A stretch of DNA of 64,000 bases from Streptosporangium lutulentum (GTDB lineage Bacteria; Actinomycetota; Actinomycetes; Streptosporangiales; Streptosporangiaceae), in assembly GCF_030811455.1 (NCBI RefSeq), contig NZ_JAUSQU010000001.1, positions 1,612,001 to 1,676,000 on the forward strand, written 5' to 3'. Each line of letters opens with the position of its first letter. The stretch's first letter is position 1. The notes under the pieces are model-generated. The model was not told the DNA's origin and ran no database searches. It was given only the letters and a program-made list of their open reading frames with translations. This document shows, piece by piece, positions 31,787 to 41,929 of this stretch. A program made the position numbers and the translations under genes.

Positions 31787-32104
31787 ATGGCACCACCGAG
31801 GAAGTATGCCCCTGAGCTGCGGGAACGCGCTGTCCGTATGGTTTTCGAGCTGCGTGCGGCCGGTGAGGGGGCGGGCGTGCTGGCCCGGGTCGCAGACCAG
31901 CTCGGGGTGCACCGCGAGGCGCTACGGACCTGGGTGCGCCAGGCCGAGGTCGATGGCGGGAAGCGCCCGGGGACATCGACTTCTGACGCCCAGCGGATCA
32001 CCGAACTCGAGCGTGAGAATCGCGAGTTGCGGCGGGCGAACGAGATCCTGAAGGCCGCCTCGGCGTATTTCGCCCGGGAACTCGATCCCAGACTGCCGCG
32101 CTAG
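31787..32104 (+). CDS. IS3-family transposase OrfA
   Basis: 105 residues with a helix-turn-helix (KYAPELRERAVRMVFELR, LGVHREALRTWVRQAE) and a C-terminal leucine-zipper-like helix (ITELERENRELRRANEILK). It binds the IS ends and regulates OrfB. GGTGAGGAG precedes the ATG. The stop lies at 32102-32104. Confidence 0.9.
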   Translation: MAPPRKYAPELRERAVRMVFELRAAGEGAGVLARVADQLGVHREALRTWVRQAEVDGGKRPGTSTSDAQRITELERENRELRRANEILKAASAYFARELDPRLPR

Positions 32105-32139
32105 TCGAGTTCATCGATACCCATCGCGAACGGTTCGGT

Positions 32140-33009
32140 GTGGAGCCGATCTGTGCCGTGCTGGAGTTCGCGCCGTCCACGTACTGGGCGGCGAAGAAAC
32201 GGGAGTCGAATCCGTCGGCTCGTGCGGTCCGGGACGAAGAGGTGAAAAAGGAGATCCTGAAAGTGTGGAACGGCCCGGGACGTGGCCTATATGGGGCGCG
32301 GAAGGTGTGGGGCCAGCTCAACCGCCAGGGCGTCACGGTCGCCCGGTGCACGGTCGAGCGGCTGATGCGCGAGCTGGGCCTGTGCGGGGCGACCTGGTCG
32401 CGCAAACGGCCCCGGACCACCGTCCCCGGCGCCGATCGACCCGGTGACCTGCTGGAACGCAACTTCACCGCGGGCCGGCCGGACCTGCGATGGGTCGCGG
32501 ACATCACCTATGTCGCCACCGCCTCCGGCTGGGTGTACACCGCGTTCGTCCAGGACCTGTACTCCCGTCGGATCGTCGGCTGGCAGGTCGCCGACCACCT
32601 GGGCACCGATCTGGCACTCGACGCCCTGGAAATGGCGATCTGGGCGCGTGGAGGCGTCATCGATGACCTTGTTCACCATTCCGATAGAGGCGTTCAATAT
32701 ACTTCTATCCGCTACGCCGAACGGCTCGACCAGGTCGGTGCGGCTCGTTCTGTGGGCAGCAAAGGCGATTCGTATGACAATGCCGCTGCGGAGTCGCTCA
32801 ACAGTCTCTACAAGAAGGAGCTAATCGAGTTCCATGGCGGCTGGAAAGGCGTCATGGATGTGACGATTTCCACCATGGAATGGGTTGCCTGGTATAATTC
32901 TGAAAGGCTACATTCTTACTGCGGGAACGTTCCTCCGGCCGAGTACGAGGAGACGTTCCACCGATCAACCGCCGACGGCGGCCTGGCGATCGAGAACCAA
33001 GCGATCTAG
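32140..33009 (+). CDS. IS3-family transposase OrfB (DDE integrase core)
   Basis: 289 residues from the ATG at 32140. The frame, in -1 phase to OrfA, is already open and family-like upstream (VEFIDTHRERFGVEP from 32104), so the natural product is probably an OrfAB fusion made by -1 frameshifting; no classical A6G slippery site was found. DDE residues are visible: D in WVADITYV, D in HSDRGVQYTS and E in NAAAESLNSLYK. The stop overlaps the right inverted repeat. Confidence 0.9.
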   Translation: MEPICAVLEFAPSTYWAAKKRESNPSARAVRDEEVKKEILKVWNGPGRGLYGARKVWGQLNRQGVTVARCTVERLMRELGLCGATWSRKRPRTTVPGADRPGDLLERNFTAGRPDLRWVADITYVATASGWVYTAFVQDLYSRRIVGWQVADHLGTDLALDALEMAIWARGGVIDDLVHHSDRGVQYTSIRYAERLDQVGAARSVGSKGDSYDNAAAESLNSLYKKELIEFHGGWKGVMDVTISTMEWVAWYNSERLHSYCGNVPPAEYEETFHRSTADGGLAIENQAI

Positions 33010-41016: not shown

Positions 41017-41574
41017 CCCCCAGCTTTCTTGCTCAGTACGGCCGCACGACCGTGGCGGGGAGGATCCGACCGGGACCGAGGAGGGAATTCTTTCCGGTAT
41101 TCGACGCCCGGGGAAATGCCCCTGCCCGGGAAACGCGTCGCCCTGTTAAATGCCTGGCGTCCGGCGAATCCCACGTCTACCGTGGGAAGCGATCAGAACA
41201 GGGACACCGTCTCGATTCCCCGTCGTGACAATCGCCGGCCAGGCGTCATGGGGGAAGGCGGCGGCACTTCCACACATCAATTCTCTTCGACTCCGGAAAG
41301 GCGTGATAATCACATGGTCGGAAGGGAGGTGAAGCGGCCAGCCTCCGTCGCCGTGAGAATTCATTCACGACGGCGGGAGCGACCGACCCACGGAAAAGAA
41401 AGGCCGGAAATCCTTTTTCATGAGACCCCGGAGACGATCGTGAGGGAATTCGTGATCGAAGTTCCCGCCGGACACGTCGTACGCCGGTTCTGAGGGAATC
41501 TTCCAGCGCCCGCCGCCCCGGGCGACGGATCTCCGGCAGCACCCGTGACGCATCCCGCCAGGCGGGAAGGCCAC
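41017..41574. other. Gap before the tRNA gene with one weak small frame
   Basis: A 59-codon frame (41314-41493, ATG start, ending ETIVREFVIEVPAGHVVRRF) looks protein-like but has no recognised family or clear ribosome site, so I do not call it a gene. Nothing else is supported. It separates the transposon graveyard from the tRNA-Gly gene. Confidence 0.4.
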
Positions 41575-41646
41575 GCCGCAGAGGCCGAACCGGTAAGGCA
41601 GCCGGCTTCCACCCGGCAGGACGGGGTTCGAGCCCCCGCTGCGGCT
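41575..41646 (+). tRNA. tRNA-Gly(UCC), atypical
   Basis: A full cloverleaf can be drawn by hand. Acceptor stem 41575-41581/41639-41645 (GCCGCAG/CTGCGGC); D stem GCC/GGC (41584-41586/41597-41599) with G18-G19 and A14, A21; anticodon stem GCCGG/CCGGC with loop CTTCCAC and anticodon TCC at 41608-41610; T stem CGGGG/CCCCG with loop TTCGAGC; discriminator T73. The G1-C72, C2-G71 and U73 identity set fits bacterial glycyl-tRNA synthetase. Oddities: position 8 is A rather than the near-invariant U, the variable loop has only four bases, and CCA is not encoded. It could be an accessory isoacceptor or a decaying copy. Confidence 0.65.
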
Positions 41647-41929
41647 CCGCCCTGAAAGAAGAGGGCCACGGGACCGGGACTCGGCGAAGGGAGTGGCGAC
41701 CCTCGCCAGGTCGGCGGTTCCACCATGCGTCCGGTACGGCTCACGCCAACCGGGCCGGACGCGGAGGACAACGCAGGTCGACGGGCGGAGCGGGTGCTCG
41801 GATCCCACCCTCTCCGCCCGGCCGCGTCAGCCGCCGAGCCGAAGCGTCCGCCGAAGGCGCCCGGCAGGACGGAAGGTGTCGCTGGAGCGGCGACGTACGG
41901 TTCGAGCGCGTCCGCGAGAGAATAGGCGA

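What the first reader, a model, noticed from the sequence alone, without database searches (positions are those of the whole stretch)
41575..41646. Atypical tRNA-Gly(UCC) lacking U8
The cloverleaf is complete and glycine identity elements look right, but U8 is A and the variable loop has only four bases, which would disturb the U8-A14 and 15-48 tertiary pairs. It may be an accessory glycyl-tRNA with reduced use in translation (some bacteria use special tRNA-Gly outside translation), or a mobile or decaying copy near the transposon remnants.
Basis: partly seen in the sequence, partly recalled or inferred. Interest (0 to 1): 0.62.

Follow-up and report, generated by a model that had tools for sequence, protein, structure and literature searches.

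The report
Accessory glycine tRNA with linked RNA
The odd glycine tRNA gene is real and belongs to a conserved set of spare tRNAs with an altered inner core in one family of soil bacteria, and it sits directly in front of a small structured RNA that matches no entry of the RNA family library searched.

Summary
The tRNA-Gly(UCC) at 41575-41646 is real and has A8. Its four-base variable loop is ordinary: the housekeeping Gly(UCC) has one too. The A8 gene is not decay. In 46 of 46 homologues read (window included; Streptosporangium, Nonomuraea, Planobispora, Planomonospora and unnamed genera) bases 8 and 48 are A and the discriminator is U, with paired changes in the stems. In 40 of the 46 another tRNA lies within 1 kb. 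In this genome the 3 scored tRNAs without U8 have a purine at 48; the other 51 have U8 and a pyrimidine. Directly 3' of the tRNA (41648-41763) is a conserved ~115-nt RNA with three hairpins, strong covariation and a possible kissing loop, not in Rfam 15. It occurs in 65 of 338 family genomes; 45 of 67 copies follow a tRNA (Pro, Gly or Ala) and 38 precede one. Of 22 copies without a detected upstream tRNA, 10 carry a shared promoter-like motif. Best reading: a back-up glycyl-tRNA left from a small tRNA cluster, made together with an apparently undescribed RNA. Expression, charging and function are untested.

The parts
41575..41646 (+). accessory tRNA-Gly(UCC) with A8, A14, A15, A48, U73; no encoded CCA
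41648..41763 (+). conserved structured RNA of about 115 nt, apparently undescribed, starting 1-2 nt after the tRNA
   Evidence: CM hit G000:C1:1653646-1653763 = window 41646-41763, 110.7 bits; covariation; folding z -3.99 against dinucleotide shuffles
41649..41666 (+). hairpin A of the RNA (loop UGAAAGAA)
41670..41721 (+). hairpin B of the RNA, apical loop AGUGGCGA
41727..41762 (+). hairpin C of the RNA, loop with CACGCCA
41694..41698 (+). UGGCG in loop B, complementary to CGCCA in loop C (possible kissing loop)
   Evidence: 100% of cells pair in 22 sequences, but 4 of 5 pairs never vary
41744..41748 (+). CGCCA in loop C, partner of the UGGCG above
41764..41805 (+). decayed remnant of the cluster's next tRNA, Pro(AGG) in L039/L040
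   Evidence: alignment; intact in L039 and L040
31405..41069 (.). stretch with IS3 and Tn3-family transposase remnants, absent from the same place in L042; context, not part of the RNA unit

Best explanation
The gene is a conserved accessory glycyl-tRNA, the survivor of a small chromosomal cluster of extra tRNAs typical of Streptosporangiaceae. Shown: the tRNA fold is kept by selection, and its inner core is consistently different from ordinary tRNAs (A8 and A48 in place of U8 and a pyrimidine at 48). Shown: a structured RNA of about 115 nt is joined to its 3' end, in the same orientation, and the same RNA follows other cluster tRNAs elsewhere. Inferred: tRNA and RNA are transcribed together and cut apart by the tRNA processing enzymes (RNase Z at the 3' end of the upstream tRNA, RNase P at the 5' end of the downstream one). 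Inferred: the tRNA is charged with glycine (U73, C35, C36 and mostly G1-C72 kept) and serves as a back-up for translation when ordinary tRNAs are cut or translation is stressed, the altered core and variable loop making it a poorer target for tRNA-cutting enzymes. The linked RNA most likely acts in trans as a small RNA; its target is unknown.
For: A8 46/46, A48 46/46, A14 44/46, A15 43/46, U73 46/46; acceptor pair 7 is G-C in 29 and C-G in 17, T-stem pair 50 is G-C in 30 and C-G in 16. In the loci read, loss of U8 also recurs in cluster tRNAs of other kinds (Gly(GCC) 7 of 9, Tyr 8 of 8, Phe 3 of 4, Trp 2 of 3, Pro(UGG) 3 of 17) and goes with a purine at 48: own genome 51 U8-Y48, 3 nonU8-R48; cluster loci 131 U8-Y48, 53 nonU8-R48, 10 nonU8-Y48, 11 U8-R48. 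The five of 16 Streptosporangium genomes with the A8 gene are the same five that have the linked RNA. RNA: covariation 0 of 500 shuffles; 43 of 45 upstream tRNAs end within 2 nt of it and 30 of 38 downstream tRNAs start within 7 nt. Analogies in print (passages or abstract seen): an Anabaena tRNA operon is induced by ribosome-targeting antibiotics (PMC10272220); the phage T5 tRNA-Tyr resists cleavage because of its variable loop (PMC13096335); phage tRNAs are predicted to escape tRNases (PMC10264068).
Against: No expression, processing or charging data. No tRNA-cutting enzyme, stress regulator or phage gene was found linked; flanking protein genes differ between genera. One homologue (L042) has C33 in place of U33 and one (L127) has anticodon ACC, which hints at relaxed use in places. 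11 of 16 Streptosporangium genomes do without both genes. The 8-48 coupling has 21 exceptions among 205 cluster tRNAs, and the counts are of related sequences, so they are not independent.
Confidence: 0.45

Rival explanations
1. The tRNA is kept mainly as a processing module: its 3' end cut sets the 5' end of the structured RNA, which is the functional product. The identity of the tRNA would then hardly matter.
For: The RNA follows Pro(UGG) in 31 copies, Gly(UCC) in 13 and Ala(UGC) in 1, of 67 copies. In the window the Pro tRNA has decayed while Gly and RNA stay intact. Copies without a tRNA upstream have a shared promoter-like motif in 10 of 22, against 0 of 45 tRNA-linked copies and 199 of 20000 random windows.
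Against: In Nonomuraea the A8 tRNA-Gly is conserved away from the RNA, which there follows Pro(UGG) at another locus, so the tRNA is selected for its own sake too. The promoter motif was chosen after looking at the sequences.
Confidence: 0.2
2. The tRNA supplies glycine outside translation, for instance to a peptide ligase or cell-wall branching enzyme, and is poorly used by the ribosome.
For: Altered core, a redundant isoacceptor, and glycine identity bases kept.
Against: No shared partner gene lies beside the homologues. The same core change occurs in cluster tRNAs for Gly, Tyr, Phe, Trp and Pro, which a glycine-only role does not explain. G18-G19 and the T loop, changed in the staphylococcal cell-wall tRNA-Gly (recalled), are normal in the window gene.
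Confidence: 0.13
3. An ordinary redundant isoacceptor; A8 and A48 are neutral historical changes with no special role.
For: Normal anticodon arm, T loop and discriminator; 53 of 62 same-genus hits aside, many genomes lack it, so it is dispensable.
Against: Neutral drift would not keep A8 and A48 in 46 of 46 homologues that differ by up to 28% elsewhere, nor couple 8 with 48 across tRNA kinds.
Confidence: 0.13
4. A pseudo-tRNA on the way out, stranded by transposon activity.
For: Lone tRNA in this genome beside IS3/Tn3 remnants; decayed Pro neighbour.
Against: 58-bit tRNA score, intact stems with paired changes across the family, 99% identical homologue without the insertion next to it (L038).
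Confidence: 0.05

Closest known systems
tRNA array units of mycobacteria, their phages and plasmids (PMC5966550, passages seen; PMC12803027, passages seen)
   Same: Closely packed extra tRNAs redundant with the housekeeping set; non-coding RNAs inside the arrays (there tmRNA and a structured RNA of ~430 nt); the M. avium arrays also hold tRNA variants
   Different: Here at most 9 tRNAs at a place (20 or more define the unit), in the loci read no phage or plasmid genes were identified beside them, the linked RNA is ~115 nt and different, and the core bases 8 and 48 are changed in a fixed way
Anabaena trn operon (PMC10272220, passages seen)
   Same: Spare tRNAs outside the housekeeping set
   Different: 26 tRNAs on a megaplasmid under a known repressor; here short chromosomal clusters and no regulator known
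Phage tRNAs that escape tRNases (PMC13096335 passages; PMC10264068 abstract)
   Same: Redundant tRNAs with altered loops, one of them protected by its variable loop
   Different: Chromosomal, no phage or viral match found; sensitivity not tested
Extra RNAs of phage T4's tRNA cluster and GOLLD-type RNAs near tRNAs (recalled, no call)
   Same: Stable non-tRNA RNAs placed between tRNA genes
   Different: No Rfam 15 family matches this one
Staphylococcal tRNA-Gly for cell-wall synthesis (recalled, no call)
   Same: Extra tRNA-Gly(UCC) with unusual bases
   Different: There the D-T loop contacts are changed; here G18-G19 and the T loop are normal and 8/48 are changed

Membership tests
Functional bacterial tRNA-Gly | complete cloverleaf with Gly anticodon above the family's cut-off | tested here: met
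Functional bacterial tRNA-Gly | glycine identity bases (recalled: U73, C35, C36, G1-C72, C2-G71) | tested here: met
   window gene has all; U73 46/46, G1-C72 45/46, pair 2 C-G 41/46; anticodon UCC in 45, ACC in 1
Functional bacterial tRNA-Gly | U8-A14 and 15-48 core pairs of canonical type | tested here: not met
   A8 and A48 in 46 of 46
Functional bacterial tRNA-Gly | is transcribed, matured and charged with glycine | not testable with these tools
   no expression or charging data
tRNA array unit (20 or more tRNAs, at least 2 per kb; definition seen in PMC5966550) | 20 or more tRNA genes | tested here: not met
   at most 9 at a place (L131, L138, L146); 1 in the window
tRNA array unit (20 or more tRNAs, at least 2 per kb; definition seen in PMC5966550) | density of at least 2 tRNAs per kb | tested here: met
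   for relatives, e.g. 9 tRNAs in about 0.8 kb in L131; not for the window
Pseudo-tRNA | broken stems or loss of constraint | tested here: not met
   relaxed signs only in L042 (C33) and L127 (ACC)
Any Rfam 15 RNA family, for the linked RNA | match at gathering score, or at E up to 5 in the short stretch | tested here: not met
   (beside the tRNA model, only a weak mascRNA match that lies inside the tRNA)
Intrinsic terminator, for the linked RNA | G+C stem followed by a U run that ends transcription | tested here: not met
   no terminator-like site at 41230-41900; 38 of 67 copies are followed by a tRNA on the same strand

The most novel reading that the evidence does not exclude
Streptosporangiaceae carry an undescribed family of kissing-loop RNAs that are born between tRNAs: the upstream tRNA is an exchangeable processing module, and lineages that lose it gain a promoter of their own. 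In parallel, their spare tRNAs form a structurally distinct class in which U8 and the pyrimidine at 48 are replaced together, giving a second tRNA core that ordinary tRNA-cutting or tRNA-modifying enzymes do not handle.
Probability: 0.35. Interest if true: 0.78.

Novelty: new variant of a known kind. Interest (0 to 1): 0.6.

Why it matters
U8 is among the most constant bases of tRNAs. A set of tRNAs that lacks it by descent, with a matching change at 48, would be natural material for asking what U8 is needed for and whether altered cores protect spare tRNAs from cutting enzymes. The linked RNA, present in 50 Nonomuraea genomes of the sample and mostly once per genome, is a candidate new RNA family with a clear place to test: next to, and perhaps released by, tRNA processing.

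Tried and rejected
Mobile origin: no match in 50,697 phage records and none in viral contigs for two exact patterns. Two records of the plasmid collection matched. One is Nonomuraea gerenzanensis, an 11.85-Mb record labelled plasmid, which carries the A8 gene in its cluster. The other, in Curtobacterium, is a tRNA-Arg(UCU) and not a homologue.

Shared partner gene: ORFs around 47 loci were compared; the widest-shared ones are dehydrogenases, LysR regulators and acyl-CoA dehydrogenases and follow no pattern. In Nonomuraea, 9 of the 12 loci compared share upstream genes for a ribonucleotide reductase small chain and an MscS-like channel, taken as plain synteny.

Terminator: rejected. Known Rfam family: rejected. 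Spread of the tRNA beyond the family: in 296 genomes of the class the nine genomes outside the family gave only partial matches of 26-61 bases, with E of 1.5e-5 or weaker, taken as other tRNAs. RNA model: 6 of 296, all in the family.

The DNA search with the RNA's sequence matched 133 of 338 genomes, most of them short weak matches in G+C-rich DNA; the covariance model was used instead. The covariance alignment A3 is fitted to its model, so leans towards the structure; A2 was aligned by MAFFT, though its structure was derived from that same alignment. The folding z-score was weak for one of three RNAs (L109, -1.73), and the tRNA alone does not fold into a cloverleaf at minimum free energy. One upstream sequence counted as without tRNA (L239) visibly ends in a Pro tRNA that overlaps the model match, so 22 is an upper count.

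Literature: searches gave no paper in their listings on such clusters or such an RNA in Streptosporangiaceae. The listings were capped (15 of 101 and 15 of 779), and subscription journals are mostly not held.

Full report
What is there. ARAGORN and Rfam agree on a complete tRNA-Gly(UCC) at 41575-41646 (+). Base 8 is A; the variable loop is AGGA; bases 14, 15 and 48 are A. The four-base variable loop is normal for this isoacceptor: the housekeeping Gly(UCC) and Gly(CCC) of the same genome also have four (read). The genome is about 10.6 Mb in 3 contigs, with the window at C1:1612001-1676000. It is placed in Streptosporangium because two same-genus assemblies have contigs of exactly the lengths (29,323 and 51,650 bases) of the named S. 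amethystogenes and S. subroseum records that carry the same tRNA.

The tRNA is conserved with its oddities. A BLAST match is present in 5 of 16 genomes of the genus and 60 of 341 of the family (some of these are short partial matches). I fetched 46 relatives' loci; one (L147) held no tRNA and was dropped. The other 45 and the window give 46 genes: A8 46/46, A48 46/46, A14 44/46, A15 43/46, U73 46/46. Stems show paired changes, for example acceptor pair 7 as G-C in 29 and C-G in 17. Exceptions to a fully normal tRNA are few: C33 in L042 and anticodon ACC in L127. The other places were not fetched at length. In 296 genomes of the class, matches outside the family were partial and weak.

It belongs to tRNA clusters. 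In 40 of the 46 loci another tRNA lies within 1 kb; the lone ones are the window, L038, L042, L130, L133 and L137. Typical orders are Ala(UGC)-Gly(UCC)-Leu-Glu-Arg-Tyr-Cys in Nonomuraea and Ala-Pro-Gly(UCC)-Gln-Gly(GCC)-Leu in Planobispora, at most 9 genes at a place. Several other cluster tRNAs lack U8 as well: Gly(GCC) 7 of 9, Tyr 8 of 8 (C8), Phe 3 of 4, Trp 2 of 3, Pro(UGG) 3 of 17, Lys 2 of 7, while Ala, Arg, Leu, Glu, Gln, Cys and Val keep it.

Base 8 and base 48 change together. In the own genome 54 distinct tRNAs could be scored: 51 have U8 with a pyrimidine at 48, and the 3 without U8 (Gly, a His and a Tyr) have A48. In the cluster loci 205 were scored: 131 U8-Y48, 53 nonU8-R48, 10 nonU8-Y48 (8 of them Tyr), 11 U8-R48. 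tRNAs whose acceptor and T stems formed fewer than 10 of 12 pairs were left out by the script, and their number was not printed. Related sequences are counted, so this is a pattern and not a test of independent events.

A structured RNA follows directly. The blocks conserved between Streptosporangium and Planobispora go on for about 115 bases past the tRNA. They form three hairpins. On the MAFFT alignment of 22 sequences 97.1% of cells pair, 10 pairs have changes on both sides, and 0 of 500 shuffles reach this; sliding the partners drops pairing to 39-56%. On 66 sequences aligned to the model the figures are 97.4% and 17 pairs (this alignment leans towards the structure). Loop B carries UGGCG and loop C carries CGCCA, complementary in all 22, but 4 of the 5 pairs never vary, so the kissing loop is unproven. 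The window copy folds better than 200 of 200 shuffles (z -3.99), L168 likewise (z -5.06), L109 only weakly (z -1.73). Rfam 15 has no match.

Where the RNA occurs. The covariance model finds it in 65 of 338 family genomes, 67 copies: 50 Nonomuraea, 5 Streptosporangium, 4 Planobispora, 2 Planomonospora and one each in four unnamed genera (genus names follow from matching contig lengths). In a class sample of 296 genomes the only 6 hits are in the family. The five Streptosporangium are exactly those with the A8 tRNA. Directly upstream ARAGORN finds Pro(UGG) in 31, Gly(UCC) in 13, Ala(UGC) in 1 and nothing in 22; 43 of the 45 tRNAs end within 2 nt of the model match. Downstream there is a tRNA on the same strand in 38 of 67, within 7 nt in 30. 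At least one of the 22 (L239) does have a Pro tRNA that the match overlaps.

Copies without a tRNA. In 10 of these 22 there is a shared two-part motif, TGGC-(16-21)-TA[TC]C[GT]T, upstream of the RNA, against 0 of 45 tRNA-linked copies and 199 of 20000 random 160-base windows of the fetched DNA. The motif was framed after seeing the sequences, and one hit (L227, 96 bases upstream) may be chance. It resembles an actinobacterial -35/-10 pair (from general knowledge). Most of these copies keep hairpins B and C, and several have lost A.

The transposon remnants. IS3 and Tn3-family pieces lie between 31.4 and 41.1 kb. In the syntenic locus L042 the flanks are 64 bases apart (L042 9424 and 9488), so the stretch was inserted here or lost there; relatives without it have the same tRNA. 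After the RNA, the window and L042 keep only traces of the Pro(AGG) gene that is intact in L039 and L040.

How it most likely works. Shown: conserved tRNA fold, altered core, cluster membership, adjacency to a conserved RNA. Inferred: joint transcription, release by RNase Z and RNase P, charging with glycine, and use as a back-up tRNA under stress or attack on tRNAs. The inference leans on printed analogies: a stress-induced tRNA operon in Anabaena (PMC10272220, passages), a phage tRNA-Tyr protected by its variable loop (PMC13096335, passages), the prediction that phage tRNAs escape tRNases (PMC10264068, abstract), and mycobacterial tRNA arrays that contain a tmRNA and a ~430-nt structured RNA (PMC5966550, passages). 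A review of non-canonical tRNAs describes U8-A14 as a standard contact and a G8 exception in tRNA-Sec (PMC7609411, passages).

Limits. There are no expression data. Function is inference. Counts are of related sequences. The search for earlier descriptions covered only the held open-access papers and Rfam.

Noticed in passing
G000:C1:1562575-1562798 (locus L242): Accessory tRNAs about 91 kb upstream of the window's tRNA: a tRNA-His with A8/A48, a tRNA-Arg(GCG) and a weak tRNA-like match.
   Followed up: partly
G000:C1:4625357-4626385 (locus L243): A tRNA-Leu(CAA) with a short variable loop and, on the other strand about 1 kb away, an extra tRNA-Tyr with C8 and A48.
   Followed up: partly
G000:C1:3649983 and 9547248 (loci L245, L244): Two tRNA genes called by ARAGORN with four-base anticodons, ctcg and cttt, that is eight-base anticodon loops.
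   Followed up: no
G000:C1:8847999, 5841934, 4625357: The only tRNA-Leu genes found for anticodons UAA, UAG and CAA have short, class-I-like variable loops; Leu(CAG) and Leu(GAG) have long ones.
   Followed up: no
window 32062-32175: Rfam ALIL pseudoknot (50.9 bits, cut-off 50), overlapping the start of an IS3-family transposase ORF.
   Followed up: no
L246 (Curtobacterium sp. MCBD17_040 plasmid D40, NZ_CP126274.1): Six tRNA genes scattered over 4 kb close to a gene annotated as RNA ligase on a 608-kb plasmid, resembling a phage-style tRNA and repair region.
   Followed up: no
L168, L172-L177, L179, L181: In Nonomuraea the Pro(UGG)-RNA unit mostly lies downstream of genes for a ribonucleotide reductase small chain and an MscS-like channel.
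   Followed up: partly
hairpin A loop of the RNA, e.g. L109:10074-10100: The purine-rich loop GAAAGRA (44 of 67 copies; GAAAGGA in 13) resembles a Shine-Dalgarno sequence; pairing with 16S rRNA was not tested.
   Followed up: no
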